Source of the DNA: Rhizobiales bacterium GAS188
Lineage (GTDB): Bacteria; Pseudomonadota; Alphaproteobacteria; Rhizobiales; Beijerinckiaceae
Length of the DNA: 64,000 bases
Direction: 5' to 3'
Assembly: GCA_900104855.1 (NCBI GenBank)
Contig: FNSS01000001.1
Coordinates: 5,890,001 to 5,954,000, forward strand
A program made the position numbers and the translations under genes. Shown here one piece after another: positions 1,685 to 50,250 of the stretch. Position 1 is the first letter of the stretch; each line of letters begins with the position of its first letter. Under the pieces are notes generated by a model. It was not told the DNA's origin and did not search any database. It saw nothing but the letters and a program-made list of their open reading frames with translations.

Positions 1685-1739
1685 GCGCCGATCCTCCGTG
1701 CCACAGCGCTTTCGACGTGTTGGGTCGGCAATGGACGGT

Positions 1740-3085: not shown

Positions 3086-3117
3086 AAGCGCATCATGAAA
3101 GCGCATCATGAAGCGCG
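3081..3117 (+). repeat. 13-bp tandem repeat, two complete units plus a partial third
   Basis: The unit CATGAAAGCGCAT occurs at 3081-3093 and 3094-3106, followed by a partial third copy starting at 3107. The first unit contains the stop codon of the upstream secreted-protein gene. It looks like replication slippage; no function is evident. Confidence 0.8.
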
Positions 3118-4018: not shown

Positions 4019-4143
4019 CGGAGAGCGCCCGGAAAGACTAAGGACGTCTCGGCGATGTATTGGATCAGCGCGCCGGTCGGGTCGGTGAGGATCGGACCCT
4101 TCCTCACAGACGCAAAGACAATGACCACGCAAACGGAAATTCC

Positions 4144-4503: not shown

Positions 4504-4606
4504 CCGATGATCGTGGATCGCCCTCGTTCGGGAGCGTGGTCTCGGCCGGCTGAGGTAGAATCCGAAACTGTTAGGGGTGACGCCGGTGGCGCTAACCGTT
4601 TCGAGC

Positions 4607-5767
4607 TTACTGCGACGATGCGCCCACGGTATCCGCCATATAGGCGCCGCGCGCGCCCATAGGCTCCGGTTGGCCTATGGTCGTATCGCGCAACGTCTGA
4701 TGCTCGGCTTCGGCATTGAGCATTGCCCCGACAAGTACGATGAGCGCACTCAGCCAGAACCAGAGCAAGAGTACGATGACCGCGCCGAGAGAGCCGTACA
4801 TCGCGTCATAGGCCCCAAATTTGGACACGTAATAAGAGAAGGCCGCCGAAGCGACGAGCCAAAAGGTGGTGGCGAACACCGCACCCCAACTGACCCATTT
4901 CCATCTCGGTTCCCTGCGGCTTGGAGCAAATCGATATAGAACTGCGAGCCCGATCATCATCAGGACGGCGAGGATTGGCCACCGCGCCAGGCCAAGGGCG
5001 AGGCGCGCGCTCTCTCCGATGGGGAAGAGGGCAAGCACAACCGGGATGACCGCGAGAGCGACCACGACGGCACCCGCGACTATGAGCGCGCCGATGGTCA
5101 AGAACAGCGCCACGATTTGCTGGTCAATGAACCCGCGCTTTTCTTCCTCCTCATTGGCGATATTGAGCCCGGTCATGAGCGCGGACATCCCGGCGCGCGC
5201 GCTCCAAAGAGCGATGAGCACGCCGATGATCAATGCCAGGCTGAGCCTGCTTGGGGCCTTGTCCACGAGACCGCTCAAGGCGTCGATCAACAGCTTGGCG
5301 GCTTCGGGCGGCAAGAACGCGGATAGCTCGATGGCGGTTTGGCGAACGGTGTGAGGGTCGGCGACCAGTGCATAGGTGGACACGAATGCGGCGAGGGCCG
5401 GGAAGACCGCAAGCATGGCGTAGAATGCAACCCCAGCAGCCACCAAGGCGAGATTGTCTGCGCCCACCCGGCGCCAGACCCGGACCATGACATCCTTCCA
5501 GCCGCGCAGAGAAATCTGCCAGGGGCTCTCGGCCTGTCGGCCGCGATCATGTTCGCTCGCCGCCTTCCCCGGTGCGATATCGTCTGCCTTGTGAGGTTCG
5601 CCAATGCTGCGACGAGGGGTGGGAATAGGCTTCTTCGAATGATCAAGTCCCTGGATCGCCAAGCTCGGAAGACTGTGCTCGCCGATTGGCGGCGCGCGGC
5701 GGAAGACCGTACGTGACGCTGTCGGAACGTCGCCACTGCGGGAAAGGCGTGATAACATCGGGATCAC
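4607..5767 (-). CDS. YihY/BrkB family inner-membrane protein
   Basis: A 386-residue protein. After an unusually long polar N-terminus (about 80 residues) comes the family entry motif around residues 84-120 (RGWKDVMVRVWRR, then VAAGVAFYAMLAVFPALAA), followed by six hydrophobic helices, with GAVIVLLLWFWLSALIVLVG near the end. This matches BrkB/YihY proteins, once annotated as ribonuclease BN; their true function is unresolved, although Bordetella BrkB was linked to serum resistance. The C-terminal 35 residues are polar and probably cytoplasmic. The long N-terminus may mean a start near residue 80, but no better-placed ribosome site was found. Confidence 0.88.
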   Translation of the reverse strand: MIPMLSRLSRSGDVPTASRTVFRRAPPIGEHSLPSLAIQGLDHSKKPIPTPRRSIGEPHKADDIAPGKAASEHDRGRQAESPWQISLRGWKDVMVRVWRRVGADNLALVAAGVAFYAMLAVFPALAAFVSTYALVADPHTVRQTAIELSAFLPPEAAKLLIDALSGLVDKAPSRLSLALIIGVLIALWSARAGMSALMTGLNIANEEEEKRGFIDQQIVALFLTIGALIVAGAVVVALAVIPVVLALFPIGESARLALGLARWPILAVLMMIGLAVLYRFAPSRREPRWKWVSWGAVFATTFWLVASAAFSYYVSKFGAYDAMYGSLGAVIVLLLWFWLSALIVLVGAMLNAEAEHQTLRDTTIGQPEPMGARGAYMADTVGASSQ

Positions 5768-6331
5768 GCTTGCCGGCGAGAGGCAAAGCTCCGCCTAGGC
5801 ACGATGTAGACGGCTAACGTGTTTCCGGCGCCGCTCATTTTTCGTTCCTTCGGATGATCAGCCCAGCGGACCATCAACATCAGGCCCTTGTGCTCTCTGG
5901 GCCGGCACGCTGCTTTGGCGAGTAATAGTGCGGAGGTCGAAAACACTATTGTTCGACGCGCTCATGGTCTCGGCTTTCCCATCGCCGCGATCATTTTGGT
6001 GGCGACCCCGAGATACGGGGTTTCGCCAAAGGCGGACGCCAATTCCGACGTGGCGACACGCCCGTTGCGCCGGAAAAGACGCGCATGAGGAGTCAGCGGG
6101 CCGATCAAGGACCCGACAATCTGACCATAGCTGACGGGAGGTCGCCGAAGCAGCCTCGGAAACTACTCAGCGGCTACGATAGCATGTCGCGGATCAGATG
6201 GGGCCGGCGGTGATCCCAACACGAATAGCCGCCAGAATGGAGGTTGCCCTGTCCTTTTTCATGATGGCGGCGCGGTGGCTTTCAACCGAGGGCGTCACTA
6301 CCGAACGTTCTTGGCGCTATCAGACAATTGC
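5768..6331. other. Intergenic region without a supported gene
   Basis: Between the BrkB-like gene and the 3' end of the Nramp gene. Several short open frames exist on both strands, but none has a credible ribosome site or a recognisable protein. No hairpin or repeat stood out. Confidence 0.5.
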
Positions 6332-7660
6332 TCACCAAGTTGCAAACATGATCGCCACCGCCACTGCCATCGTCCCCGTACATAACCACCCCATCGCCCA
6401 CAGCACCCGCGGCAACACGAAACGGCCCATCACGTCGGGGCGCATTGCCATGAGCATGATGATCACCATCAGCGGCACCGCGACAATACCGTTGATCACC
6501 GCCGACCAGAACAGAGCCTTGATTGGGTCGAGCCCGACAAAGTTGATGACAATTCCGATCAGGGTGGACACCGCAATCGTGCCGTAGAACGCCCTAGCGT
6601 CGAGCGGCTTGCGGTCGAGGCCGGTTGTCCAACCAAGCGCCTCGCCGAGCGCGTAGGCGCCAGAACCGGCGAGCACTGGGACCGCGAGCAGGCCGATGCC
6701 GATGATGCCGGCGGCGAAGAGTGCGAAGGTGAACACCCCCGCGATCGGCCGAAGTGCCTCGGCTGCTTGCGCAGAGGTCTGGATGTCGGTGATGCCGTGT
6801 GCGTTCAATGTCGCCGCCGTGCTGACTATAATGAACAGGCTGATCACGTTCGAGTAGCCCATGCCGATATATGTGTCGAAGCGCATGCGCGCGATCTCCG
6901 CCGGTGCCTCCTCGGGAGCTTCGAGCAGCGCGTGCGCCGAAGGGTCAACCCGTTCATCTTCGGCCTCCTGAGAGGATTGCCAGAAGAAGCAGTAGGGCGT
7001 GATTGTCGTGCCGAGCACCGCGACCACTGTGACGACGTAGTCCGTGCTCAGCGAAAAATTCGGCACGAAGGTCCGATACAGGACGAGCCGCCAGGGCACG
7101 TCAACCACCAGCGCCACTGCCACGTAGGCGAGCAGCACAAAACTGGTCCATTTCAGGATGGAGACGTAGCGTTCGTAGCGGGAGTACACCTCCAGCCAAG
7201 TGCAGCCGACGGCAAAGCCGGCGACGTAGAGGCCGATCGGGCCGCCGATCAGCAGGTTGAGTGCCGCGGCCATTGCGCCGAGATCAGCGCCGAGGTTGAT
7301 GATGTTCGCCAGGAGCAGCAGCCCAACGATCGCGTAAAGCAGCCAGGGCGAGTAGTGCGCGCGGATGTTGCCGGCGATGCCCTGGCCGGTCACGCGGCCC
7401 ATGCGCGCGCTGATTTCCTGGATCGCCGCCATCAGCGGGAAGCAGAACAGCATCACCCAGCACATCGAGTAGCCGAACTGCGCGCCGGTCTGTGAGTAGG
7501 TGGCGATACCGCTTGGATCGTCGTCGGAAGCGCCGGTGATCAACCCGGGGCCGAGTCGGCTGAGCAGCCCCTTGCGCGCTGATCCCCGGGGAGCGCGGTG
7601 CCGGGCGATGCGCGCCGCCACGACTGGAATTGTGTCAGAGGCAGCTTTTACGTCCGTCAT
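6332..7660 (-). CDS. Nramp-family divalent metal transporter (non-canonical motifs)
   Basis: A 442-residue polytopic membrane protein of the Nramp/SLC11 family. The start at 7660 (MTDVKAASD) is chosen because residues upstream of it lack family similarity. TM1 carries DDDPSGIATYSQ (residues 46-57), where canonical Mn/Fe transporters have DPGN. TM6 reads TTITPYCFFWQ (about residues 218-228) instead of the canonical MPHN-type sequence, so the metal-coordinating Met is absent. Loss of that sulfur ligand relaxes selectivity against Mg/Ca in studied Nramps, and a related clade carries Mg, so the substrate here need not be Mn or Fe. It stands alone; no MntR/Fur site was recognised. Confidence 0.87.
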   Translation of the reverse strand: MTDVKAASDTIPVVAARIARHRAPRGSARKGLLSRLGPGLITGASDDDPSGIATYSQTGAQFGYSMCWVMLFCFPLMAAIQEISARMGRVTGQGIAGNIRAHYSPWLLYAIVGLLLLANIINLGADLGAMAAALNLLIGGPIGLYVAGFAVGCTWLEVYSRYERYVSILKWTSFVLLAYVAVALVVDVPWRLVLYRTFVPNFSLSTDYVVTVVAVLGTTITPYCFFWQSSQEAEDERVDPSAHALLEAPEEAPAEIARMRFDTYIGMGYSNVISLFIIVSTAATLNAHGITDIQTSAQAAEALRPIAGVFTFALFAAGIIGIGLLAVPVLAGSGAYALGEALGWTTGLDRKPLDARAFYGTIAVSTLIGIVINFVGLDPIKALFWSAVINGIVAVPLMVIIMLMAMRPDVMGRFVLPRVLWAMGWLCTGTMAVAVAIMFATW

Positions 7661-7883
7661 TGCTCCCGGCCCTGCTTGGGCTTCCTTAATCGCCGCATGC
7701 TGAGCCTCGCCGCAGTGATCGAAAGCCACTGGTAGCACACACGGCCAAAGCCGTCTTGGAACGTCCGCCACCCTGGTCGCCGTTACCGTTGAGCGCTGGG
7801 TCGGAAACTGAGCGGGCTCAAGATCCCGGCGCCGAGACCTATCTCCCCGAAAATGCACGGCCTCCTATACCAAGTCCATATGT

Positions 7884-8040
7884 TCATGACCCGTGGGCCC
7901 AGCGTTCGGATGGACGTGATGAGCCAGAGTCAATCACCAACTTGTTCCAGTTGAAACAACAATGATCGACGATGTCTTTGTAGGAAGGGAAGACCCGGTT
8001 TGAGAGCCAGTTGTCTCGCACATATTGGGTCAGCCTCACG
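7884..8040 (-). pseudogene. IS630-family transposase, 3' remnant
   Basis: The minus-strand frame contains YVRDNWLSNRVFPSYKDIV followed by DHCCFNWNKLVIDSG and ends SERWAHGS. This is a slightly decayed version of the C-terminus of IS630-type DDE transposases (usual pattern: RDNWLSNRVF, HCCxAWNxL, GLRDWAHRS). The upstream part of the frame is unrelated and the catalytic DDE residues are missing, so only the last 50 or so codons survive. No terminal inverted repeats were identified. Confidence 0.7.
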
Positions 8041-8043
8041 GGT

Positions 8044-8416
8044 GCATGTCCGTCAATATCCACGAGCATGCAGACGAAATCGGGGTGGGCTCCGGGGCCG
8101 GACGTGCGGGTTCTGGGCGCCAAACGGGACGCAGGTTGCTTGGTGATCTCGGCGATTGGGCCGGAGATAGCCGAGAGCGACTGACACGTCGACACAGGCG
8201 GTATTCTCGACATCTTCAAGACCTGCCCATGCAAGGTGCCGTCGTGTCCGTGATAGTCATGGTGCGCTACCCAAATGAAACACTATCGCCGCCAACGCGA
8301 CCACGGCGACCGCGGCAGCCACTAAGCCAACAGTCAGGATCGCGAGGCGCAGCATCCGCATGTCGTGTCTGCGGTCATTCACGGCCGAACCATAAGCCAA
8401 GCGGCGGCGCGCATGG
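8044..8416. other. Intergenic region, no supported gene
   Basis: Lies between the IS630 remnant and a small hypothetical gene. Only short overlapping frames without similarity or ribosome sites are present; it is probably degraded sequence of the same accessory region. Confidence 0.45.
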
Positions 8417-8716
8417 TCACCTAACGGGACACGCCAGCAACGGCTGGAGGATCATGCGAGGGGCAAACGTGGCGGCGAGCGCAACGACCGTTTGAATTTG
8501 CCTTGACTGCTCTTGGCCCGTGTCGCGCGCGTGGGTTTCCGAGCCTTCTAGGCGTGCCACCGCCTTGCAAAGGGCGTCGATCCCGGCCGCCTCAAATACA
8601 GCATCGACTTCGAGGAGATAGCTCATCCACATCGGATGGAACTTGAACGCCGCCTCCTCGAAGTAACCGTCCCTGACACACAGCGCACGCGCTGCCAATT
8701 CTCGCGGGCTCGCCAT
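8417..8716 (-). CDS. Small hypothetical protein
   Basis: A 99-residue protein that I do not recognise. The ATG at 8716 has a strong purine-rich site (GAGAGGGAC) about ten bases upstream, which supports it as a real gene. The sequence is mixed alpha-helical and soluble-looking with a hydrophobic C-terminal third (about residues 74-97, VVALAATFAPRMILQPLLAC); it has no signal peptide and no clear motif. Neighbours are an IS630 remnant and empty sequence, so context gives no hint of function. Confidence 0.5.
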   Translation of the reverse strand: MASPRELAARALCVRDGYFEEAAFKFHPMWMSYLLEVDAVFEAAGIDALCKAVARLEGSETHARDTGQEQSRQIQTVVALAATFAPRMILQPLLACPVR

Positions 8717-9508
8717 GGGTCACCGTCCCTCTCGACGGTCTTTCACTAGGCCAGCTAGCGAGCCTACGGGATCACGCCGATGACCAGATACGTGTAATCG
8801 GGCTGTAGGTTCCCTGACGCCGAATTTGCAGACAAAGGTCACCCAGGGAAGCCTCCCGGACACGCCAGAGCGCCCTGGGAAAAATCCAGAATGAACAGCC
8901 AAGCACATCATGCCCATAGCGTCCCCTGCGGACGTTCATCTCACACGCGCCCAGGTGCGCATTGGTGCGTTGCGAGGCCTGACAGAGACGGGGTCGGGAG
9001 GGCCACCGGGGAATGCGCTTATCGACCGATTGCGTTGAAGAACTCCTTTTTCGTCGTCGGCTCCAAATTCACAGGGCCGTGGGCACGACACCGGAAAAAG
9101 GATGTGGGGGACCATAGGATATAACGATGAAGCGCCAAGTGACCGCCGTAGGTTGATCGCGGTGGCATTGAACGCCGATCTTCGCTCACGACGTCGTTCG
9201 GACGGCTTTCCGGGACGCGCCAATTTCGGAGTTTCTCAATAGTATCGACCCTTTCGGGTCATTCGTCGCGGAGAGTCCTATGAAGCGAACTGGCCCAGAG
9301 TTGCCACTCGTACAACTCGCTTGAACGTCCGAAGCGGGGCAGCCCCTGCAAAGTTGCAGTCTGGACGAGCAGACCAAAGGTCGGAGATATATGCGAAGAC
9401 TAAGAAATGGATTCGTTGAGCCACTTGCCTGACCGCGCTATGCTCTATCCGACGTTGCGCCAAGTGCTGGCCGCCGCCTCGGAAGAGGCGGACACCAAAG
9501 GGGCGCCC
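8717..9508. other. Intergenic region, no supported gene
   Basis: About 800 bases with short open frames on both strands, none with a convincing start or familiar product. The last 40 bases hold the leader of the DUF4399 gene. Confidence 0.45.
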
Positions 9509-9937
9509 ATGTCGAGCGTGATACGTATTTGTTGCGTTGTGACCGCCATGCTCTGCACTCTCGGTCTGGCGCTGGCGACCCCGTCGGCGCCTGGCGCCGT
9601 AGTCTATTTCATAGGCTTGAAGGACGGCGACACCGTCAAGAGCCCGTTCGTCGTGCGTTTCGGCCTGTCCGGCATGGGCATTGCGCCGGCCGGCGTAGAG
9701 AACCAACCCAACACTGGCCACCATCACCTGCTCATCAATGCCAAACTCGAGGACGACGAGCTCAAGCAGCCCATCCCGATGGATGAAAATCACCTGCATT
9801 ACGGCAAGGGGCAAACCGAAGCCGTCCTGAACCTGCCTGCGGGGACCTACACGCTGCAGCTCGTGCTTGGCGACTGGACGCACCTACCTCACGAGCCGCC
9901 AGTCCTGTCCGACCGGATCACCATAAAAGTAGAATAA
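9509..9937 (+). CDS. DUF4399 domain-containing periplasmic protein
   Basis: A 142-residue exported protein. The ATG at 9509 is chosen because it begins a clear signal peptide (hydrophobic core about residues 5-21, cleavage after ALA near residue 23) and is preceded by AAAGGGG; the frame is open upstream but gives no signal. The mature domain contains VYFIGLKDGDTVKSPFVVRF, GHHHLLIN (about residues 71-78), a second His pair (HLHYGKGQTE) and LVLGDWTHLPHEPPVLSD, which together are the DUF4399 signature. The conserved histidines suggest metal binding, but no function is established. Confidence 0.85.
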   Translation: MSSVIRICCVVTAMLCTLGLALATPSAPGAVVYFIGLKDGDTVKSPFVVRFGLSGMGIAPAGVENQPNTGHHHLLINAKLEDDELKQPIPMDENHLHYGKGQTEAVLNLPAGTYTLQLVLGDWTHLPHEPPVLSDRITIKVE

Positions 9938-10143
9938 CGCGAGGACGTCCGGCAGGAGCAACCGCTCCATGCTCAGCTTCCCACTGGAACGTGCCTAGCA
10001 GTGACTCAGTCGATTGAGCCGTATCCCTTCGGTGAAGTTCGGTGAAGGCCATCTGGACGGCCACGGAGCAATTCCGGGATAGTTGGGACGGAGTGTTGAC
10101 ACGATGATCGTGTCCACGAAGCGGCTGATGGACACGATCGCTA
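9938..10143. other. Spacer before the IS66 remnant
   Basis: Contains the imperfect direct repeat TGTTGACACGATGATCGTGTCC / GATGGACACGATCGCTAATG-like words near 10095-10145 but no gene. It may include decayed insertion-sequence end DNA; no terminal inverted repeat could be confirmed. Confidence 0.3.
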
Positions 10144-35218: not shown

Positions 35219-35923
35219 ATGATCATCGGCGTCCTGAATCAGAAGGGCGGCGTCGGCAAGACGACCGTCGCCATCAATCTCGCGGCGACGCTTGCAGGTT
35301 CAGGCCCCCGCGTGCTTCTGGTCGACGCCGATCCGCAGGGGAGCGCGCTCGCCTGGTCGAGCACGCGCGAGCGGCAGCCGCTCTTTGCCGTGGTGGGCAT
35401 GGCCAAACCGAGCCTGCATCGCGAGCTTCCGGGCCTCGCCAAGGATTACGACTATGTGCTGATCGACGGCGCGCCGCGCGTCAACGATCTCGGGCGGGCC
35501 GCGATCCTCGCGAGCGACCTCGTGCTGATCCCGGTGCAGCCCTCGCCCTATGATGTGTGGGCGGCGGCCGACACGGTCGAGCTGATCCGCGAGGCGCGGC
35601 AGTACAAGCCAAACCTCAAGGCCGCCTTCGTCATCAACCGCATGATCGCCCGAACCGCGATCGGCCGCGACGCTGCGACGGCGCTCGCCCAGTTCGACGA
35701 TGTGCCGGTGCTCGCCGCCATGCTGGTCCAGCGCGTCATCTATGCGGAGAGCGCCGCCAAGGGCCTCGCCGTGATCGAGGCCGCGCCTTCGAGCGACGCC
35801 GCGCGCGAGCTGGCCGAGCTGGCGAAGCAGGTGCTGGGCGAGCAGGAGAAATCGAGCAAGGTCGTTGCGAGGAAGGCTTTGGCGAGCAAGTCGCTGTCTG
35901 GAAGGAAAGGGAAGGCCGCATGA
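35219..35923 (+). CDS. parA: ParA family ATPase
   Basis: A 234-residue ATPase. It has the deviant Walker A KGGVGKTT (residues 9-16), LLVDADPQGSALAWS (Walker A' Asp), DYVLIDGAPR (Walker B) and a basic C-terminal tail (KVVARKALASKSLSGRKGKA). It is the short ParA type, lacking an N-terminal helix-turn-helix, seen on plasmids, integrated elements and in protein-positioning systems. No ParB or parS was recognised; instead it overlaps (ATGA) a 125-residue protein of unknown type. A chromosomal orphan ParA pair that positions a protein cargo, or a plasmid relic, are both possible. Confidence 0.9.
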   Translation: MIIGVLNQKGGVGKTTVAINLAATLAGSGPRVLLVDADPQGSALAWSSTRERQPLFAVVGMAKPSLHRELPGLAKDYDYVLIDGAPRVNDLGRAAILASDLVLIPVQPSPYDVWAAADTVELIREARQYKPNLKAAFVINRMIARTAIGRDAATALAQFDDVPVLAAMLVQRVIYAESAAKGLAVIEAAPSSDAARELAELAKQVLGEQEKSSKVVARKALASKSLSGRKGKAA

Positions 35924-37061: not shown

Positions 37062-37205
37062 CGCTTTCCTTCTCCCGCTCTTGGGCGGGAGAAGGTGCCC
37101 GAACGCAGTGAGGGCGGATGAGGGACGCCGTTGAAGTGCTCCACGGCCCCTCATCCGCCTCGGCTTCGCCTCGGTACGTTCTCCCGCGAAGGGCGCGAGA
37201 AGGTG
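37062..37205. repeat. CTTCTCCCGC/GGATGAGGG dispersed repeat
   Basis: Two GC stems (CCTTCTCCCGCTCTTGGGCG plus GGAGAAGG; CGTTCTCCCGCGAAGGGCGC plus GAGAAGG) around GGATGAGGGACGCCGTTGAA and CCCTCATCCGCC. Confidence 0.85.
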
Positions 37206-37277
37206 ATTCCTATGAGGCGACTTTCAGATATTGCAGTTAGGGCGCCCGTCGCTTATTTTGGTGACAAAGGAGACGCC

Positions 37278-37716
37278 ATGACCGCTCAGGTGCTCCGGTT
37301 CATTGAACTTTCGGATAGGGACCGGAAGCGGGCCAAGTCGCCGCCCAAACTGGCCAAGGGCGATGACGTCGAGGTTCGCATCAGGCACCGAGCCGGCAAG
37401 GAGCGCACCGTGCCCCTGCCGCCGCGGGCGGCCGCGCTCGTCGAAGCTCTGCTCGATCACCTGCTCCGCGGTGAGCGTGTCGCCGTTCTCGGGGAGGATC
37501 AGGAACTGACGCCGAACGAGGCGGCCAGCATCCTCGGCATGTCCCGGCCTCTGATCGTTCATCGTATGGATGTGGGCGACCTGCCGTTTCGCTATGTCGG
37601 CAAGCACCGCAGGACCAGGCTGAAGGATGTGCTTGGCGAAGATCGACACGCAGCAGGCAGCGCTTGCCGAGCTGGCCGAAGACACCGAATCGCTCATGAA
37701 CGAGCATGGCCTTTAG
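37278..37716 (+). pseudogene. Excisionase-type antitoxin with one-base frameshift
   Basis: The ATG at 37278 follows AAAGGAG. The protein (about 145 residues when corrected) carries a helix-turn-helix of the excisionase/antitoxin type (ELTPNEAASILGMSRPLIVH, then DLPFRYVGKHRRTRLKDVL). After codon 120 an extra G at 37635-37636 throws the frame; the other frame continues AKIDTQQAALAELAEDTESL and ends MNEHGL-stop at 37716, the normal antitoxin tail that binds the PIN toxin. The stop overlaps the ATG of a PIN toxin fragment, the usual arrangement of these pairs. Confidence 0.75.
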
Positions 37717-37804
37717 CCTGCTAATCGCCGTCTACGACGCCTGCGTTCTCTATCCCTTCCACCTTCGCAATCTGCTTATTCTTGCTCGAAGCCATGGCTG
37801 CTGA
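37706..37804 (+). pseudogene. PIN-domain toxin, 5' fragment cut by the defence cassette
   Basis: The frame from the ATG at 37706 reads MAFSLLIAVYDACVLYPFHL then RNLLI, the exact N-terminus of a PIN RNase toxin family (VYDAxVLYPxxLRxLL, with the first catalytic Asp). After about 25 codons it runs into unrelated sequence, the complement of the DUF499 gene end, and stops at 37804. The C-terminal 130 residues, with the remaining acidic residues, are not seen at the other side of the cassette. So the toxin is inactivated, and its end marks the junction near 37770. Confidence 0.75.
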
Positions 37805-40800
37805 ACTTCAGGGTCCGGCTATTCTCAGTGACAGTCCGAACGACATTGTCAGGGGCGCCCGAAGGAATTTGCGCCGAAATCTCCAGTGTCACAGTGACCT
37901 CAGAGCCAACCAGCCCCGCCAGGTGGGCGATGACTTCATTTGCGATTTGCCCTGCATCACGACCGACTCTGGTCGCGTCCGGGAACGTGAACGTCCCGTG
38001 GAAACGCTTCGGTCTGGATGCGGCTGCCGGATGCCCTTTCGCCCCTTCCTCCGCGACACCACCCGCAGTCGCAGAGCTATCGCGTAGCAATATCGTATCG
38101 CTCTCTCCTTCGGCTCGTGCAGGCGGCTTAGCGTTCGCCTCCGCCTCCAACTGTTTTTGCGCAATATCAGGTTTGACAAGCAGGTCGGATCGGCTATCGG
38201 CGGATACAGCAACAACCTGCCCGCACCGCAATCCGCGATATCGCCCATTCGCCTCGTCGTAGCCTTCGGCGAACGCAAATGAGTCCTTGCCCCAGGTCAG
38301 CAACCCGAGTCCATCTCGAACAGCCTGGAATAAAACCTCGGGCTCCTTCAGCCGGGGCAAATAGAGGTAGCGGGCGAAGTCCTCGACTAATTGCTTGATG
38401 GGTACATGATCGCCGCGCCAAAGCGGCACGCGGTCAAGCTCCATGCGTAACCGGGTCCCCGCGAACCCGGTAAGCAACAATTCGTCGTTGCGAAGCTTCT
38501 TGCCGGCACGGACGGCCAGCGCGTCCTGCCCGGAAAGCCGCAGTGCCTGCCACTCGACAGGCGATTGCGGAGACGCCTGTACCGGGACCAGCAGCCACTG
38601 ATAGGTTTCAGGCACACGCGCCGTGACGACACCATCAGCGGCGGTCTTCTGCGTCTCTGCCTGTTTCACCTGCTGAGGATCGAGATTGAGAGTGACTTTC
38701 TCGTCCAGGATCGACTCCCATGCGAGATAGCGGCGAGCAGCCTCGTCGAGATCCTGCAGGCGCGTTTTGTCTGCTGCGAGAAACACGAGCGTGTTGCGGT
38801 AGAGGCGCGGTGTGTTACCCCGCGACTCGAACATCGTTTTGGCCACGACCTCTGCGGCGCAGCCTGGCTCCTTGCTGTAGGGGTGATCGACCCCGAGCAC
38901 GACCAGTCGCGCATCGAGATCGTCGGGCACGTCCTGCCCCGACTGCGGCATCGGGTGGATGCGGCTGAAATCCCCCTTGCGCTCCAAATCCTTGCGCAGG
39001 CGTCGATCGAGCTCGTGCACCACCTTGTCCGGATCACGCTTGAGCTGCTCGGCGCGATCCTCCGCCAGCTTGGTCACTGTAGGCTGCGTAGAGTACCAAT
39101 AGCGCGGCCCGTCCTGGTAGAGGTAGGTGGCGGCGCCGGCCAGACGCCGCAGCGCATCTCCAAAGACCGCCGGCGACTCGCTCGGCATGACACAGCCGAG
39201 CTTCACGCGCCGGTCTTCCAGGCCTCGATGTGCCGCCTGGGTAAGCGGGGCCGAGCCCAGATAGATGGCGCGCGCCACGCGCCGGCTTGCCGCGAATTTG
39301 CCAAGGTTCGGCACCTCGGCATCCAGTCGAAGCGGGAGCGAGCTTGGGCCGTCCACATCCTTCTCGATCACCGGCACCCAATTGTCCGAGAGATAGCGCG
39401 TCAACTCGAATTGCACCCGCGGATCGTCGATCGAAATATTCGCCGGCAAGATGAGCGGGTTCCGGTCGCCTTTCTCCCACAGGCTGTGAATCACGGCCGC
39501 CATCAGGCGCAACACGCCCCGGGTACGCTGGAACTTCACCAGCGTCGACCAATCCGTGTAGAGGCGGTCGAAGATCTCCGGATGGATCGGATAAGCCGCC
39601 TTGATCCGCTTCTCATAGTCGGCGTCGCGGCACTCGGGCGGGAACTCCTGATGCTGCGTCCGATAAAGGTCTGCGAAGGCGCGTGCCACCACGTCGCGAT
39701 CCTTGAATTGCGCCGGATCGGTCATCGGCTCGAACAACCGGCGGCGCACGATCTCGAAACCCTCCTCGGCGCTCGCGGGTCGCCACGAAGACTCCACGCG
39801 GCCGACCACGTTCCGGAGCCGATCGAGAGCCTCGCGACCGCGCTGGCCGCCTACCTCGACATCGTCGGCCTGGGTATGCGGCGACCCCGCGGTGTCCGAG
39901 GCGGGAAGGCTGATCACCAGCAGACAGTTCTTCGCGAGCTTCGCCGACTCGGTCAGCACCTGGGCAAAGCTGAATTGTGTCTCGAAGCCGCCCGCCGGCA
40001 GGTCACTCTGATCGTGGAGTTGGCGCGCATAGGCGACCCACTCATCGATCAAGATCAGACATGGTCCGTACTCGGTGAACAGTTCACGCAGCACATCGCC
40101 AGGGCTGGTGGCCTTTTCATCGTCGGCCTTTATCCGGGCGAAGGCCTTCTTGCCGCCGAGCTGCCAGGCGAGCTCACCCCATAGCGTGCGCACGACGGTG
40201 CCGTCCGGTTTGGTGGACGGATTGCCGGGTGAGATCTTGTTGCCGACCAGCACCACGCGCTTGGCGGTCGGCAGCTGATTTGCTCCGGCCTCCTGCATGA
40301 CAGCGTCGATACCCGCCAGCTCCGTGGGCAAAATGCCGGAAAACAGATGGTAGAGAGCCAGCATCGAGTGCGTCTTGCCGCCACCGAAATTGGTCTGCAG
40401 CTGCACGACCGGGTCTCCACCCTCGCCAGCGAGACGCCGCACGGCGCCAACCAGCATCCCTCTCAGACTGTCGGTCAGATAAGTACGGCGAAAGAACTCG
40501 ACCGGGTTCTTGTACTCGGCAGTGCCTTCGCCGAGATGCACCTGCCACAGATCGGCTGCGAACTCGGCCTGCTGATAGCGGCCGCTCGCCACGTCCTTAT
40601 GCGGCGTCACCACCTCGCGCCAGGGCTTGAGGTTGCCGGTAGCTTGGCTCTCGATGGCGGTGCCGGCGCTCTTGCGCTTTTCGCCGCGCACCTGCTCGTC
40701 AAAGATGAGCCGCCTCAGCTCCATCTTCATCTTGCCGACCTCGTCGGCCTGTGGTGCGGAGACGGCGGTCAGGAGCCTCGAGACGGAGTCTAGGGCACGG

Positions 40801-41126
40801 TCGGCATCATCACCGGAGAACGGAGTCTGGTGCGCCCAACGATTGCGTGCATCGATCAGCTCGTTCACCAGGCTGCGTTCCGCCTTGCCCAGCGTCTTCC
40901 GAAAGACGTCACCCCAGGTCCGATCCATGATGACCAACTGCACCGCGACGTCCTGCATCGCGTCGCCCTTCCCGCCGCCCAGTCGAGTATCGTTGAGAAC
41001 CTCCTTCACCTCGGAAGCCCAGCGGTCGCCATGATAAGTTTTCAGTTCGCGCTCTACGAACGGACGAAGGCCCTCCTTGAGCAGCTCGAGCGCCCTGCCG
41101 ACGCGTTCATGGTTGCTGATCGCCAC
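37776..41126 (-). CDS. Defence-type ATPase: Swt1-like HEPN domain plus DUF499
   Basis: A 1116-residue protein. Residues 1-125 are a Swt1-family HEPN domain with IDARNRWAHQ (Arg94, His99), the RX4H signature of HEPN ribonucleases. A P-loop follows: NFGGGKTHS (Walker A, residues 246-254) and CLILIDEWVAYA (Walker B, Asp361-Glu362), both typical of DUF499 ATPases in DISARM/Hma-like phage-defence operons. The remaining 700 residues are largely uncharacterised and end with a Ser/His-rich tail. It is the last gene of the operon and overlaps the CBS-HEPN gene by 20 bases. Expected role: nucleotide-driven sensing or remodelling, with possible RNA cleavage during infection; inference. Confidence 0.85.
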   Translation of the reverse strand: MAISNHERVGRALELLKEGLRPFVERELKTYHGDRWASEVKEVLNDTRLGGGKGDAMQDVAVQLVIMDRTWGDVFRKTLGKAERSLVNELIDARNRWAHQTPFSGDDADRALDSVSRLLTAVSAPQADEVGKMKMELRRLIFDEQVRGEKRKSAGTAIESQATGNLKPWREVVTPHKDVASGRYQQAEFAADLWQVHLGEGTAEYKNPVEFFRRTYLTDSLRGMLVGAVRRLAGEGGDPVVQLQTNFGGGKTHSMLALYHLFSGILPTELAGIDAVMQEAGANQLPTAKRVVLVGNKISPGNPSTKPDGTVVRTLWGELAWQLGGKKAFARIKADDEKATSPGDVLRELFTEYGPCLILIDEWVAYARQLHDQSDLPAGGFETQFSFAQVLTESAKLAKNCLLVISLPASDTAGSPHTQADDVEVGGQRGREALDRLRNVVGRVESSWRPASAEEGFEIVRRRLFEPMTDPAQFKDRDVVARAFADLYRTQHQEFPPECRDADYEKRIKAAYPIHPEIFDRLYTDWSTLVKFQRTRGVLRLMAAVIHSLWEKGDRNPLILPANISIDDPRVQFELTRYLSDNWVPVIEKDVDGPSSLPLRLDAEVPNLGKFAASRRVARAIYLGSAPLTQAAHRGLEDRRVKLGCVMPSESPAVFGDALRRLAGAATYLYQDGPRYWYSTQPTVTKLAEDRAEQLKRDPDKVVHELDRRLRKDLERKGDFSRIHPMPQSGQDVPDDLDARLVVLGVDHPYSKEPGCAAEVVAKTMFESRGNTPRLYRNTLVFLAADKTRLQDLDEAARRYLAWESILDEKVTLNLDPQQVKQAETQKTAADGVVTARVPETYQWLLVPVQASPQSPVEWQALRLSGQDALAVRAGKKLRNDELLLTGFAGTRLRMELDRVPLWRGDHVPIKQLVEDFARYLYLPRLKEPEVLFQAVRDGLGLLTWGKDSFAFAEGYDEANGRYRGLRCGQVVAVSADSRSDLLVKPDIAQKQLEAEANAKPPARAEGESDTILLRDSSATAGGVAEEGAKGHPAAASRPKRFHGTFTFPDATRVGRDAGQIANEVIAHLAGLVGSEVTVTLEISAQIPSGAPDNVVRTVTENSRTLKFSSHGFEQE

Positions 41127-42006
41127 GGTCGCTCCTCTTACTATCGCCGTCTTTCGCGGGACCAGCCGGCTCGGTTGGCCAAGTCGCGAGCCGGCTGAGC
41201 CACTGATCCATCAGTCTCACAGTTTCGCAGACGTGGCACGCGGCCTCCCGAGTCGCGGCATAGTCATTCGCATGCGCAAGGTCATTTCGGAGTGCCTGGA
41301 CCTGAGCCAGGTCGCGGTCAAACGACTTCTTGCTCCATTGAAAATCCGGGCTGTTTTTGACGATCGTCACCTTGTCGCAGAATTCTGTGAACAGAAGCGA
41401 ATCGACAAACGCGTCTTGTGATTTAGCCTCGGCAACTTTGTTACGAACCTTGGATATTCGCTCTGCCGATAGACGGTTGATCCAATCCTCGGACTGGTCG
41501 AACTCGCTGCGGATGGCATGGGCCATGGTAATTTCAAGATGCGTAACCATCGCGAACAGAGCTGCGCGGACCGGGAGCCGTTGCAGATCCGATATGCTCA
41601 CCAGGCCGTTGATTTGCGGACCTGAGACTACGAGGCGGCACTTTTGCCGATCAGCGGTGCGGATAAAAGTCAAAAGGCTGGCATCCGCACCAATGAGGTT
41701 CTCTTCCGACAAGGGTCGCATTTGGTCTCGAACGAATCCCCGAGACTCGGCGCCATGAATGAATGGGACAAGCTCAACCAGACCAATGATTCGTTTCCGG
41801 ATTCCGTCGACACACTCGACAACGGGGAAGTAATCGAAACCGCCCTGGTTGCGCGCAACCACGACTGACATTTCTTCATCCGGACGGCACGTCTCGAAGG
41901 CATCCCGCGGCGTCTCGATGAGGCGAATGGGAAGCCCCTCCTGAAAGGTTGCGAGGGCAGCTGCGGCATTGTCCCCGGCTCCGGTGGCCCATCTCCTCGC
42001 GCTCAT
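41107..42006 (-). CDS. CBS-pair / HEPN-like protein of the defence operon
   Basis: A 299-residue soluble protein. The ATG at 42006 follows GGGAG and is preferred over an ATG at 42039. Residues about 25-160 look like paired CBS modules (RKRIIGLVELVPFI, INGLVSISDLQRLPVRAALF), which usually bind adenine nucleotides. The C-terminal half is helical and ends with ALRNDLAHANDYA, a second RX4H HEPN motif (Arg-Asn-Asp-Leu-Ala-His). A nucleotide-gated RNase is a reasonable hypothesis. It sits between the methyltransferase (39-base gap) and the HEPN-DUF499 ATPase (20-base overlap), so it belongs to the operon. I do not know this gene as a standard member of described systems. Confidence 0.7.
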   Translation of the reverse strand: MSARRWATGAGDNAAAALATFQEGLPIRLIETPRDAFETCRPDEEMSVVVARNQGGFDYFPVVECVDGIRKRIIGLVELVPFIHGAESRGFVRDQMRPLSEENLIGADASLLTFIRTADRQKCRLVVSGPQINGLVSISDLQRLPVRAALFAMVTHLEITMAHAIRSEFDQSEDWINRLSAERISKVRNKVAEAKSQDAFVDSLLFTEFCDKVTIVKNSPDFQWSKKSFDRDLAQVQALRNDLAHANDYAATREAACHVCETVRLMDQWLSRLATWPTEPAGPAKDGDSKRSDRGDQQP

Positions 42007-42045
42007 GGCGACTCCCGTTCGGACTTCCTTTGCATCCACGACGGA

Positions 42046-44926
<2,881 letters not shown>

Positions 44927-44930
<4 letters not shown>

Positions 44931-46639
44931 GCCGCTTCCACTTCTTGCGCTTCCAGATCGGCTGCCTCTCTTGCACCGGTCAGGCGCTTTATGACTTTCC
45001 AGAGCTCCGACTCGCGCCAGGTTAGGAAGGCTTCATAGTCATCAGTCCAGAATGGTGAGCTCGCGTCGGCGGGCAGACAATGCGATGCCAGTACATCGGC
45101 AAACGGAAAGTCGGGGGTCTTCCTGATGTCATTGAGGTAGTCCGAGGGCGCGCGGGCGCTAATCATTTGATTGGTGGTGCGATCGATCAGTGTGCGGTTC
45201 AACACACAGTCGCGTAAGCGCGGCAACCTAATGCCTTTCTCCGCTTCCAAATAATGCGATGGGAAAATGTGATGGTCGTCGATGCCCTCGTCCGTCATCA
45301 GCTTTGCAGTGATGACGGCCTTTGTGTGAAAATCGCGTGCGCCAGCTCCGCTGCCAAGGATGAGACATATCGTGCCGCGGTAGATTGAGCGTTGGCGCGG
45401 TGTAACGTCACGCAGCGCTTTCGGATCAAATCGGAACGTGCTCACGGTCTCGGGTAAGGTTCCGTCGCTCAGCCACGTTACGAGATCGGCGACATCCTTG
45501 GCTGATTGGCTGTTCGGAGCCTTTTCATAGGCTTGGCCAAACACGGCGCACCAGAACCACCGCTTGAGATTTTCCCGCCGCGCCCCGGCCTCGGCACTTT
45601 GGGTTAGGCCCAATTTAGCCAGCACGGCCGCCATAGGGGCAAGCATTGTTTGGTATGGTAGCCACTTGGGGAGAACGACCTTGCAATCGTCTCTGAGAAT
45701 TTCGAGCCCGGCGGCAAGCCCTGCAATGACTGGACTCCACCACTCTTGCATATGAGTTGTCGAAAGATTAAGTACATCGCCGCGTTTGCATGAAGGTGTC
45801 TTGCGGCAGGCAAGCGATATCGCCTGTAAGACGTAGTAAGGATCGACCTCAAATTCTTCGAGGATCGTATGTTCCGTGCGCGCCTTTTCCCAAAGCTCTC
45901 GCAAATTGATCTTTTGTGGCCAAAACCGCGCCGTCAACAACTCGAAGACACTAAGCTTGACGCCCGTTCGATTGAGTGTCTCAAAGATTGTGCATAAAGC
46001 ATCTGGCTCGGTTTCGTTTGAAAGCGTAACCACCGGAAATCGGTACTCATCGATCGTTTTGATCCACTTATCATTGATTTTCATCAGCGAATCCTGCATT
46101 TGAATTCGATCCGCCTCCGGCATCTTATTGGTGACTTGGAGCAACCACTTGAGAAAATCGCCCGCGCCGCCTCTGAGAATACTGAGAGGCAGAATTAGCT
46201 CTTTCGCCTGCAGATCGAAGCTCTCATGAGCCTTGACCCATTTGGTTGTCGCGCGCTCGTAGCTGATCACCTCCTCAAAGTCTGCGCCATCAATCAGTTC
46301 TCTCAGGTTGAGGTAATAGCGGTGTTCCCCGACACCAAAGAATGCTTGGTAGAGCGAGGTGAGCCGTTGCTGACCGTCGAGGACGAGAAAGGTGTGCTTA
46401 TAGCCGTCGAGCGCAGGCGACCCCTCGAACTCCCTCGCCGCAAAAGCACGCTTTTCGTCGCGAACACGGAGTATGCTTCCTGCCGGGTGGTCATTTGCAA
46501 TCGAGACTATCAGTTCCTGTGTGGCACTCGGCTCCCACACAAAGTCTCGCTGGAAGTCAGGTAGCGCCATCGTTCGGGAGTTGATCTCTCCGAGCAGTTC
46601 CTTGAGCGCCTTTGGGTTCGTGTCTTCGAATAGGCTCAT
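44927..46639 (-). CDS. DUF262/DUF1524 (GmrSD-like) protein
   Basis: A 570-residue protein. The N-terminal DUF262 domain contains [20 protein letters not shown] and [18 protein letters not shown] (DGQQR, residues 88-92), the nucleotide-binding ParB/GmrS-like motif. The C-terminal third has [16 protein letters not shown] and [15 protein letters not shown], the HNH-type DUF1524 nuclease motif. Such proteins are type IV modification-dependent restriction enzymes or phage-defence nucleases. It lies 27 bases after the helicase gene and overlaps the methyltransferase start (ATGA), so it is inside the operon, where it could cut foreign DNA lacking or bearing a given mark. It is intact. Confidence 0.88.
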
Positions 46640-46666
46640 GGGTTCACTCGACTTGCTTGAAATATC

Positions 46667-49600
46667 TCAGGAGGGGCTTTGCGCGCGTGCCAAAAACTCT
46701 GCAAAGCTATAGTTGACGCTCGTGACTCCGAAATCGGGCTCGCGTTGGAATGGTCGACGGACGTAGTGAACGCGATGATCGTCGCCGTCGAATTCGACGA
46801 CAGCTAGAATGAACTCCTCCGGTTTGTTGAGCGAGTAAAGAATTTCGTTTCGAGTGACGGTGATCGTGGCGGCGCCTGAGACCCGGCCCTTGACCTCGAT
46901 GAAGCGCAGGCGCCCGGTCCCCGGAATGCGGCTCTCGATGTCATAGCCAAGTTTCTCGAGTTCGCGGTCGGTCGGCTCGAAACCTAGTCCGCGTTCGATG
47001 TCCATCACGATTTGGCGGGCTCGCGCCGCGGCGGCCTGCGTGTCGCTGGACGTGGCGGTGGTGGACCCTTGCTGACCTGTCATTGCGGCGATCAGACCGG
47101 CCGGCACCACGAGCATCCCGCCGATTACCACGGGCGGCAGCGGGGAAATCTGGCGCTCGTGCTTGATCTCTTCCATGCGCTTTTCGAGACGTGCCTGAAG
47201 GGAATCGGCGCGCTTGCGTGCTTCGCCCGAGTTGAGCCGGGCATTCGGCTTTCCCGACTGCTCCTGCAGCTTCAGCTGCTCCGCCCGGTGATCCCAATAG
47301 CCGATCTCTTTCGTAAGCCGGTCTTTGACAGCGGCCTCGGTTTTGTCGAGCAGGGGAAGCTTGCGGGAACGGATTTCGGCGAGGTGCTCAGGCACCACTT
47401 GGCCGATGGCGTAGCTCAGTGCCTTCTGTTCGAGCCCTTGACCGACCCACTCGGCCTCGGGGCGCGCTAGAAACGCTTCAACATCCGGTTCATTTTTGGC
47501 GAGAGGCCGATAGTCGAGATATGGCGCATATTGAAGATGGCGCGGGTTGCCGGCGGTATCGATCTCGACATAGAGCATGCGCTTGGAGACGACACGGCGC
47601 TCGCCCGCGCGAGTCATGCCGGCGTCCTGAATGGCATGCTCAAGATAGAACAGCACGCGTGGGGTTTGTCCCTGATCACGCTCATCCACAAGCACGGTAC
47701 CTCGGCGCAGGAGGTCCCGCTGGCGCTCAAGTGTTAGGTCGATGACCGTGTCGAGCAGCGGGTGGCCGGGGCATACAAAGGCGGCCAGAGGCTGGCCCTG
47801 TGGGGCAACAAGCGATTTCTCGAAGGCAATGCGCTCGTAGCGCGGCAAGACCGGCTCCCCGATGCCGATCAGGCGATCACGATTGCGCACGGGGGCGGGG
47901 ACGTGCGTCACCTCGTAACGGCGGGGCTCGCGCTGCATTGCGTTGCCGCCGAGGCGCCGGAAGGCTTCGAGGAAAAAGGACTCGATGTAGTGCGGTTGCA
48001 GGCGGCGAGCCTCGGCGCGCTCCATGTCTTCGCGGATTCGATGAACGCGGCTGGCGTCCATCGAATCATGTGCAAGAGCATGCTCTTCCAGCAAATCTTG
48101 CAGCTGGCTGCGGTCGAGAGCGCTCTCCACGGCCTTCGTGAGCCGGGCCCGCACCTCGGGCAGATCGCCGTAGCGGATCGCTTCGATCAAAAGCTCACGA
48201 AGGGGGCGTCCTTCGAACATCAGCTTGCCGAGGACGTCGAACACCTGTCCGCCCAGAGCTTTGCGGGCCTGCTCGAGCTTCTCGAGTAATTTTCGATAGA
48301 CATCGCCCTCACGAGTCTCTTCGGCCACCAAATTCCAGAGATGGCACACCTCAGTCTGGCCGATGCGGTGAATGCGACCGAACCGCTGTTCGAGGCGGTT
48401 CGGATTCCATGGCAGATCGTAGTTCACCATCAAATGGGCACGCTGCAGATTGATGCCCTCGCCGGCGGCGTCGGTGGCGAGGAGAACCTGGACTTCGGGG
48501 TCGTGCCTGAAGGACTCCTGCGCCTTCATTCGCTCCTCGCGCCCCATGCCGCCATGAATCATGACGACAGCCTTTTGCGACCCAAAAGGGTTGTGATGCG
48601 GCCTTCCAAATAGTTCAAAGTATCGCGGTGCTCAGTAAAGAGGACCAATTTTTGCGATGGTGACGGAAGCGGTTTGGGGATCGCCGGCGTTCCCGAGTCG
48701 TAAGGGGTCTCCTCTTCGGCGAATTGGTTTGATATCGCTGCCGGCGTGAAGATCTCGGATAAGAGGCTCGCCAGCTCGCGCCATTTCTTGTCTTCGCCAC
48801 TGCGCCTGATCGAGAGCGCTAGCGCCTCGAGACGTCTCAGGGTCTCGATTTCCGTCCGAAGCTCCGCGATGCTGCGAGCTGCCGTGGCCTGATCGAGGAT
48901 TTCCTCCTCAGCAGCTTCGACCTCGCTGTCGGGAGCTTCTTCAAGGTCTTCCACATCCTCCGCGTCAAGCGCTGGCGCCGACGCAGCGAGGAATGGCGCG
49001 AACTCACCGCCGCGATGGAGAATCTCCAGCTCGCGCAGCCTGCTTTCCAGTCTTTCGCGGCGGCGGCGAAGTGATTGAAAGATCGCCTCCGGTGATGAGG
49101 CGAGGCGCCGCTGCAGGATGGTCAGTGCGAATCCAACGGTGCCGGCGCGCTTGTCATTTTCAAGAGCCTCAGCGCGATTGAACTCCTCGCGGACATAGTC
49201 AGTGACTTCCTTGTAGAGCCGGGCTTCGGCGTCGGACAACTTATATGGGACTGTGTAAGCGATACGCTCCGGGAAGAGTGGTGTGCCGTCGAACTTGAGC
49301 AGAGTCTCCTTGACCATGCGGCGCATGAGGTCCGAAACATCCTCGGCGTGAACGCCGTCACGGAAGCGACCCTCGAAGCGATCTCCGTCCAATAGGGCCA
49401 TGAAAAGCTGAAAGTCCTCTTCCTTTCCGTTGTGCGGTGTCGCCGACATCAGGAGGAAGTGCCGCGTGAGCCCCGAGAGCAGCTGTCCCAGCCTGTATCG
49501 TTTGGTGAATTTCACCTCGCCACCGAAAAACGTGGCGGACATCTTGTGCGCCTCGTCGCACACCACCAGATCCCAGCCGCAATCCGGCGCCTGCAGCTTC

Positions 49601-50250
49601 TGCTGCACATCCTCGTTTCGTGAGAGCTTGTCCAGCCGAGCGATGACGAGGTTGGTCTCGAGAAACCAGTTGCCGGTCCTGGCGGCCTCCAGCTTGTCGT
49701 TCGTGAGAATGTCGAACGGGAGATGGAACCGGCGATAGAGCTCGTCCTGCCACTGCTCGGCGAGGCTGCCCGGGCAGACTACAAGGCAACGTTGGAGGTC
49801 GCCGCGCGCGATCAGCTCCTTCATCAACAAGCCGGCCATGATCGTCTTGCCGGCGCCTGGGTCATCGGCCAGCAAGAATCTCAATGGCTGGCGGGGAAGC
49901 ATCGATTCATAAACGGCGGTGATCTGGTGAGGGAGCGGCTCCACCAATGAGGTGTGAACTGCGAGCACGGGGTCGAAGAGGTACGCAAGCCGAATCCGTT
50001 GCGCCTCGGAGACCAGGCGGAAGAGCCCGCCATCCCCATCGAAGCTCCAGGGGCGCCCCTGCTCGACAACCTCAATGCGAGGTTCGTCATGCCGATAGAG
50101 CAGCTCGTTCGCGACCTTGCCTTCGGGGGTCTTGTAGGTGAGTTCCAGCGCCTCGGACCCGTGCCACTGCACGTTGACGACAGTCACAAGCCCATTTGGC
50201 AGGACGCCCCGTACTGAGGCGCCCGGCTTGAGATCCTCCAAGTGGCTCAT
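46667..50250 (-). pseudogene. SNF2-type helicase with DUF3883, one-base frameshift
   Basis: Corrected, this is one protein of about 1190 residues. From the ATG at 50250 the first frame gives LADDPGAGKTIMAGLLMKEL (Walker A, about residue 132), VVCDEAHKMSATFFG (motif II) and LLMSATPHNGKEEDF (motif III), then stops at 48559 after an A4 run (48573-48576) that appears one base short. The second frame continues AVVMIHGGMGREERMKAQES, DAAGEGINLQRAHL (motif V) and RFGRIHRIGQ (motif VI), with a C-terminal DUF3883 domain (LGYDIESRI, RFIEVKGR). This is the DrmD/Hma-type helicase, first gene of the operon. Helicase motifs lie on both sides of the break. Confidence 0.88.

What the first reader, a model, noticed from the sequence alone, without database searches (positions are those of the whole stretch)
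37776..50250. Unusual phage-defence-type operon: SNF2-DUF3883 helicase, DUF262 nuclease, DUF1156 methylase, CBS-HEPN, HEPN-DUF499 ATPase
Five tightly packed or overlapping minus-strand genes. The helicase-methylase-ATPase core (DUF3883 helicase, DUF1156 methyltransferase, DUF499 ATPase) resembles DISARM-related systems, which I recall being named Hma. What is unusual is a GmrSD-like DUF262/DUF1524 nuclease between helicase and methylase, and a CBS-HEPN protein between methylase and ATPase. Together they suggest a layered system: DNA self-marking, a DNA nuclease, and two HEPN domains that could cleave RNA on infection. The exact five-gene set is not one I know from the literature.
Basis: partly seen in the sequence, partly recalled or inferred. 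Interest (0 to 1): 0.78.

Follow-up and report, generated by a model that had tools for sequence, protein, structure and literature searches.

The report
Hma defence operon with swappable inserts
This is a known kind of bacterial anti-virus operon (helicase, DNA methylase, ATPase) that also carries two extra nuclease-like genes between its core genes; related operons carry many different extras there, and this genome's own copy looks broken in two core genes.

Summary
The five minus-strand genes are real. The core is PADLOC's Hma, renamed "Type-1 BREX-related" in 2026. HmaA and HmaB each carry a frame break; relatives read the same junctions in one frame in 42 of 43 (HmaA) and 52 of 52 (HmaB). 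A control over 49 kb of host genes gave one weak candidate, so real decay is likelier than error, but not proven. The extras follow a pattern: among 85 related loci the helicase-methylase gap holds 200 bp or more in 44 of 47 measurable cases, the methylase-ATPase gap in 33 of 71, with varied genes that show no fit to the core tree. DUF262 relatives lie upstream of HmaB in five of 98 other Hma loci and downstream of HmaC in a sixth; distant CBS-HEPN relatives lie beside HmaB in two, one also with DUF262. Another CBS-HEPN heads a type I R-M operon. The exact five-gene order: 0 of 98. I file it as a new variant of a known kind: an R-M-like core with exchangeable effectors. Whether CBS-HEPN guards its neighbouring methylase, as PrrC guards EcoprrI, is the testable novelty.

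The parts
48559..50250 (-). HmaA, first piece: SNF2/DEAD helicase N-terminal part (open frame runs to 50385; the profile match starts at residue 46, an M at 50250)
   Evidence: PADLOC HmaA PDLC00659 positions 1-539, E 3.5e-248; Pfam SNF2-rel_dom
46667..48562 (-). HmaA, second piece in another frame: rest of the helicase plus C-terminal NOV_C domain
   Evidence: PDLC00659 positions 544-1172, E 6.4e-260; Pfam Helicase_C 45-110 of 110 and NOV_C
48540..48600 (-). region of the HmaA frame break
   Evidence: frames change here; 42 of 43 measurable relatives read one frame across it
44927..46639 (-). DUF262/GmrSD-like gene in slot 1 (between HmaA and HmaB)
   Evidence: Pfam GmrSD_N E 2.6e-31; DGQQR and C-terminal DDHH...N residues identical in 5 of 5 aligned sequences, window plus 4 relatives
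43665..44930 (-). HmaB, first piece: DUF1156 and the N-terminal methyltransferase part
   Evidence: PDLC00660 positions 8-430, E 2.3e-222; Pfam DUF1156 E 9.3e-33
42046..43650 (-). HmaB, second piece in another frame; its translation holds DPPY
   Evidence: PDLC00660 positions 439-963, E 1e-239
43645..43700 (-). region of the HmaB frame break
   Evidence: frames change here; 52 of 52 measurable relatives read one frame across it
41107..42039 (-). CBS-HEPN gene in slot 2 (between HmaB and HmaC), with LRNDLAH (Rx4H) motif
   Evidence: NCBIfam DS11 E 1.8e-4, below cut-off; hhalign to DS-11 family 98.2%, E 3.3e-14; R and H invariant in 6 of 6 aligned members
37776..41126 (-). HmaC: Swt1-type HEPN fused to DUF499 AAA+ ATPase
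   Evidence: Pfam HEPN_Swt1 E 7.6e-38 and DUF499 E 4.4e-28; PADLOC HmaC, 1176.7 bits; RN-x-WAH and GGGKTH invariant in 6 of 6 aligned sequences

Best explanation
The locus is an Hma / Type-1 BREX-related (HEPN-DUF499) operon with one accessory effector in each of its two inter-gene slots. Shown by sequence: the core families, the two extra genes, the motifs of HmaC, DUF262 and CBS-HEPN, the frame breaks, and slot use in relatives. Inferred: HmaB marks self DNA; the HmaC ATPase and HmaA helicase-nuclease attack unmarked DNA; the GmrSD-like enzyme covers phages whose modified DNA escapes that; the HmaC HEPN and the CBS-HEPN are back-up RNases, the latter gated by an adenine nucleotide as proposed for DS-11. 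In this genome one frame change each in HmaA and HmaB probably silences the DNA-restricting core, while the other three genes stay open.
For: Family matches. HmaC relatives in 80 kept genome loci at 71-80% identity (best segment), in plasmids and in 13 viral-contig loci. Slot 1 holds 200 bp or more in 44 of 47, slot 2 in 33 of 71 measurable loci. Gap ORFs of 150 aa or more run with the operon in 106 of 119 cases. Chosen cargo matches PtuA/PtuB, AriA/AriB, AbiL, HEC-01, HEC-07, TmtA (over about the first 370 of 1402 residues), Schlafen, kinase, RloB and SAVED models. Five cargo families (24 rows) on the HmaC tree need 15 changes, shuffled labels 14.6 on average. DUF262 relatives in 6 of 98 other Hma loci, five upstream of HmaB; CBS-HEPN in 2 of 98, one beside DUF262. 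Frame breaks not shared. PMC12839542 describes embedded back-up effectors and cites an experimental study of HmaA defence; BrxU sits between brxC and pglX.
Against: No experiment. The CBS-HEPN relatives in Hma loci are distant (28% and 32%). The two AlphaFold models were poor (mean pLDDT 47.8 and 52.2) and were not used. Gap ORFs were called mechanically and some may not be genes; two gaps counted as filled are only 208 and 256 bp (L063, L019). Other, related NCBIfam anti-phage models for DUF1156 and DUF499 proteins fall far below their cut-offs (63.7 of 1000 and 182.5 of 1200 bits). The frame breaks could be assembly errors.
Confidence: 0.66

Rival explanations
1. Both frame breaks are sequencing or assembly errors and the five-gene operon is intact and working.
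For: Each gene has a single break, with almost no profile positions missing (539 to 544; 430 to 439). The other three genes are open. HmaA also falls into two ORFs in three relatives, L016, L019 and L063, so broken HmaA frames are seen elsewhere, for whatever cause.
Against: Across 43 places and 49.0 kb of host genes matched to relatives in one frame, one weak split candidate was seen, its first piece only 18 residues; rpoB is open. At one break per 49 kb, two or more in 12.5 kb has probability about 0.03. The control is small and none of its places lies in the window.
Confidence: 0.3
2. CBS-HEPN is a guard of the methylase or restriction complex: held silent by it and released, with a nucleotide signal, when a phage disables it, as PrrC is silenced by EcoprrI.
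For: CBS-HEPN lies directly beside a DNA methyltransferase gene in 4 of the 6 family members aligned: after HmaB (window), before HmaB (L043, L080), before HsdM of a type I operon (L207). PrrC precedent: passages of PMC2610378. DS-11 loses defence when its CBS or HEPN residues are changed (passages of PMC13092281).
Against: Adjacency only, and biased: the window, L043 and L080 come from Hma loci by design, so only L207, L208 and L008 were found independently, 1 of 3 beside a methylase gene. L208 and L008 show none next to them; three further archaeal hits were not looked at. If HmaB is truly broken, a released guard should harm this host.
Confidence: 0.25
3. The five genes form one obligate new system.
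For: Close packing and overlaps; the DUF262 plus CBS-HEPN pair recurs in L080.
Against: Exact order in 0 of 98 other Hma loci; no CBS-HEPN was found with DUF262 in L012, L028, L045, L069 and L044, and no DUF262 with CBS-HEPN in L043 (some of these loci are cut by contig ends). Three loci have both gaps empty: L003, L022, L024.
Confidence: 0.06
4. HmaA and HmaB are working split or programmed-frameshift genes.
For: The HmaA pieces meet in an ATGA overlap.
Against: Relatives are in one frame at these places (42 of 43; 52 of 52). The HmaA split falls inside the Helicase_C domain.
Confidence: 0.04

Closest known systems
Hma (PADLOC; PMC8565338) = Type-1 BR system (PMC12839542)
   Same: HmaA, HmaB and HmaC by profile; HEPN fused to the DUF499 ATPase; helicase with a C-terminal NOV_C domain
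   Different: Two extra genes between the core genes; HmaA and HmaB frame-broken in this genome
BREX with BrxU on pEFER (PMC8565348: abstract and one section seen)
   Same: A DUF262/DUF1524 enzyme inserted between core genes of a methylation-based system
   Different: BREX core, not DUF499; the window protein is very distant from the best PDB match 7p9k, a DUF262 protein that I recall to be BrxU (E 0.1)
DS-11 (PMC13092281: passages seen)
   Same: CBS plus HEPN in one protein, with an RN-x-x-x-H type motif
   Different: Far below the NCBIfam cut-off (20.7 against 260 bits); the first 123 positions of the DS-11 profile lie outside the aligned stretch; DS-11 is described as a one-protein system
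HEPN-CBS fusions and HEPN-DUF499 R-M operons noted in 2013 (PMC3710099: passages seen)
   Same: CBS fused to HEPN, proposed to respond to nucleotides; HEPN-DUF499 in operon with R-M parts
   Different: No CBS-HEPN placed inside such an operon in the passages seen
PrrC-EcoprrI (PMC2610378: passages seen)
   Same: RNase gene linked to an R-M operon; nucleotide-linked control
   Different: PrrC has an ABC ATPase, not CBS; silencing is reported there for PrrC only
DISARM
   Same: SNF2 helicase related to DrmD
   Different: DrmD cut-off not met; no DrmB or DrmC in the rows shown

Membership tests
Hma (PADLOC) | HmaA, HmaB and HmaC encoded together | tested here: met
   All three by profile, HmaA and HmaB in two pieces each
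Hma (PADLOC) | core genes in one open frame each | tested here: not met
   Frame breaks in HmaA and HmaB, not shared by relatives; bears on function here rather than on kinship
Type-1 BR system | DUF499 ATPase, DUF1156 N6-methyltransferase, Swi2/Snf2 helicase | tested here: met
   Pfam DUF499, DUF1156, SNF2; N6 specificity not testable (the PADLOC paper calls HmaB m5C)
Type-1 BR system | helicase with C-terminal nuclease domain, and no DUF3780 (Type-2 mark) | tested here: met
   NOV_C in the second HmaA piece; no DUF3780 match among the five genes. Nuclease activity itself not testable
Type-1 BR system | N-terminal TUDOR domain of the helicase | not tested
   no Pfam match there; no structure made
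GmrSD / BrxU type IV enzymes | DUF262 N-terminal domain with DGQQR, and C-terminal H-N-H-like stretch | tested here: met
   GmrSD_N match; residues identical in 5 of 5 aligned sequences; the C-terminus has no Pfam match and is called by motif
GmrSD / BrxU type IV enzymes | cleaves modified DNA only | not testable with these tools
   needs biochemistry
DS-11 | NCBIfam NF053863 above cut-off | tested here: not met
   20.7 against 260 bits; related at profile level only
HEPN RNases | Rx4-6H motif | tested here: met
   HmaC RNRWAH, CBS-HEPN RNDLAH
DISARM | DrmD over cut-off, with DrmA, DrmB and DrmC | tested here: not met
   DrmD 210.6 and 138.9 bits for the two pieces against 610; DrmA and DrmD models of PADLOC match the helicase far below HmaA; no DrmB or DrmC in the rows shown (25 of 32 and 25 of 49 for the helicase pieces)

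The most novel reading that the evidence does not exclude
Hma operons of this clade are a two-slot chassis: a conserved restriction core that carries interchangeable guard or back-up modules in fixed positions, inherited independently of the core. CBS-HEPN is one such module, a nucleotide-sensing RNase that watches the integrity of its neighbouring DNA methyltransferase, in Hma and in type I R-M operons alike.
Probability: 0.23. Interest if true: 0.65.

Novelty: new variant of a known kind. Interest (0 to 1): 0.45.

Why it matters
Hma/BR operons are common: passages of PMC8565338 give 1,638 instances and presence in 26 phyla. Their mechanism is still mostly inferred in the sections I read, although PMC12839542 cites an experimental study of the HmaA helicase. 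The slot pattern offers a direct way to find new effectors, by reading what sits between HmaA and HmaB. The CBS-HEPN beside methylase genes gives a concrete, cheap test of whether a nucleotide-gated RNase guards a DNA-restriction complex. For this genome, the message is sobering: the locus is probably not a working restriction system as it stands.

Tried and rejected
DISARM membership: rejected on the DrmD cut-off. Fixed five-gene system: rejected, because the extras vary independently. Programmed frameshift as a family trait: rejected. AlphaFold models of CBS-HEPN and DUF262: confidence too low, so no fold search was run. A first frame-break control with scattered stretches gave only 2 matched places; I replaced it by one with stretches round rpoB added. 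CBS-HEPN searches: 1 of 60 relatives, the own genome; 4 plasmid records, all archaeal and distant; none in viral contigs; 3 of 398 genomes of the phylum, own included. DUF262 in viral contigs: 2 weak hits. The DS11 family search flagged 379 of 398 genomes; only 6 passed the cut-off. I take most of the rest for other CBS proteins, because the matches listed cover the CBS part, but I did not check them. Promoter and terminator scan upstream: nothing. PDB searches: nothing for CBS-HEPN, only weak chance-like hits for HmaC, RapA for the helicase.

Dropped rows and partial use: L001, L002 and L008 were left out of the slot survey, as they are not independent Hma loci. The 13 viral-contig loci were searched for the two extras and listed, but not put into the slot counts. 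Of 153 gap ORFs, 51 chosen representatives went to the whole-set family scans, which list only the 25 commonest families. Searches scanned 10 proteins, nine of them from those 153 and one the L080 CBS-HEPN gene; searches took a few more. Tree labels: 24 rows in five cargo families. L045 carries both an AbiL-like pair and DUF262 and was labelled DUF262; L037, with a Schlafen relative in slot 2, was not labelled.
Full report
What is there. Seven open frames on the minus strand make five genes: a helicase in two frames, a DUF262 gene, a methylase in two frames, a CBS-HEPN gene, and a HEPN-DUF499 ATPase. PADLOC profiles name the core as HmaA, HmaB and HmaC with very strong scores. Pfam gives SNF2, Helicase_C, NOV_C, GmrSD_N, DUF1156, HEPN_Swt1 and DUF499. 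The window lies in an unnamed 9.09-Mb genome in three contigs. One SNF2-domain place was found in that genome and no second full HmaB, only a 43-residue relic.

Frame breaks. HmaA stops at profile position 539 in one frame and resumes at 544 in another; HmaB stops at 430 and resumes at 439. In relatives the same junctions are read in one frame: 42 of 43 measurable for HmaA (the exception is L016), 52 of 52 for HmaB. HmaA falls into two ORFs in L016, L019 and L063, so breaks in this gene are not unheard of. The control found 43 places with 49.0 kb of host genes matched in one frame over more than 80% of the query, and one weak split. This makes two chance errors in 12.5 kb unlikely (about 0.03) but not excluded. 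The other three genes are open, with their key residues: RN-x-WAH and GGGKTH in HmaC, DGQQR and DDHH in DUF262, LRNDLAH in CBS-HEPN.

Relatives. With five plasmid loci this gives 85. The gap between HmaA and HmaB could be measured in 47 and held 200 bp or more in 44; the gap between HmaB and HmaC in 71, with 33 filled. At a 300-bp threshold the numbers are 42 of 47 and 33 of 71. With an ORF of at least 150 aa on the operon's strand they are 39 of 47 and 22 of 71. Three loci have both gaps empty: L003, L022, L024.

Cargo. Gap ORFs of at least 100 aa, with the window's two extras, fall into 25 families of two or more members and 65 singletons. One of the 25 is confined to a single locus and two hold antisense ORFs only; one is the DUF262 family. 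Chosen representatives match Septu PtuA and PtuB, TmtA (first quarter of the protein), AbiL/AriA-type ATPases, HEC-01, HEC-07, PDC-S01, PDC-S02, PD-T4-6-like kinase, an AriA/AriB-like pair, Schlafen AlbA_2 with HATPase, RloB, SAVED, Uma2 and HepT. Gap ORFs of 150 aa or more run with the operon in 106 of 119 cases. On the HmaC tree (86 rows, FastTree) the five labelled slot-1 families, 24 rows, need 15 changes; 300 shuffles gave 14.6 on average, 221 of them 15 or fewer. Cargo therefore shows no inheritance with the core in this small sample. [quoted passage not shown]

The two window extras. DUF262 relatives lie in the gap upstream of HmaB in L012, L028, L045 and L069 (67-71% identity) and upstream of HmaB in L080 (69%); a sixth, strong by profile, lies downstream of HmaC in L044: 6 of 98 other Hma loci (85 plus 13 viral-contig loci). 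A more distant DUF262 protein lies in L077 (E 6.7e-9). CBS-HEPN relatives (28% and 32% identity) lie directly upstream of HmaB in L043 and L080: 2 of 98. In L080 the order is DUF262, CBS-HEPN, HmaB, two ORFs, HmaC; the first of those two ORFs belongs to the HEC-01-like family of L041. HmaA was not within the stretch fetched for L080. A closer relative (40-42%) in another genome overlaps the start of HsdM in a type I operon with HsdS and HsdR. The window family and the DS-11 family match over 196 columns, but the window protein is far below the DS-11 cut-off.

Mechanism. Inference from families: HmaB marks self; the HmaC ATPase and HmaA helicase-nuclease destroy unmarked DNA (model of PMC12839542, of which I read sections 28-31 and 35 and passages). 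The DUF262 enzyme would add type IV restriction, as BrxU does inside a BREX locus (abstract and section 16 of PMC8565348). The HEPN domains would be last-resort RNases; DS-11 loses defence when its CBS or HEPN residues are changed (passages of PMC13092281). My addition is the guard idea for CBS-HEPN, from its place beside methylase genes in 4 of 6 aligned family members, by analogy with PrrC (passages of PMC2610378). Three of those four come from Hma loci by design; of the three members found independently, one lies beside a methylase gene. The guard idea is not shown.

Novelty. The core is known, and embedded effectors in BR loci, GmrSD-family enzymes and HEPN among them, are in print (PMC12839542). 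HEPN-CBS fusions were noted in 2013 (passages of PMC3710099). I did not find the five-gene order, a slot-by-slot account, or CBS-HEPN in Hma operons in the listings and passages. In PMC12839542 the word CBS does not occur in the main text; its supplements, which it says list neighbourhoods, were not read and may hold this arrangement. I therefore file this as a new variant of a known kind.

Limits. One clade, chosen by similarity; many contigs end inside the operon; gap ORFs were called mechanically; no structure of use; no experiment.

Noticed in passing
L013, L015, L081 and L042: HmaB is only about 41-51% identical to the window's while HmaC is 72-78% identical, which suggests that the methylase gene itself has been swapped in some operons.
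   Followed up: no
L192:4910-9986: In a viral-contig locus the HmaB gene appears in two parts about 2 kb apart with three ORFs in between, as if cargo had entered the methylase gene itself.
   Followed up: no
L207:1675-10462: A CBS-HEPN homologue heads a type I R-M operon (HsdM, HsdS, HsdR), overlapping the HsdM start.
   Followed up: partly
G000:C1:6791966-6792094 (outside the window): A 43-residue HmaB C-terminal relic with a stop codon elsewhere in the same genome, a possible remnant of another Hma locus.
   Followed up: no
L057, gap between HmaB and HmaC, 857-10001: Slot 2 of this Myxococcota locus holds about 9 kb with five long ORFs.
   Followed up: no
window 37131-37724 (+) and 35219-35923 (+): A protein with a weak helix-turn-helix match (below Pfam's cut-off) converges on HmaC, and a ParA/VirC1-like ATPase lies nearby; possibly part of a mobile or plasmid-derived region.
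   Followed up: no
window about 34.9-37.2 kb and 50.7-52.3 kb: Similar peptide fragments seem to recur in spurious ORFs of intergenic stretches, which would suggest a dispersed repeat family flanking the operon (by eye; no repeat search was run).
   Followed up: no
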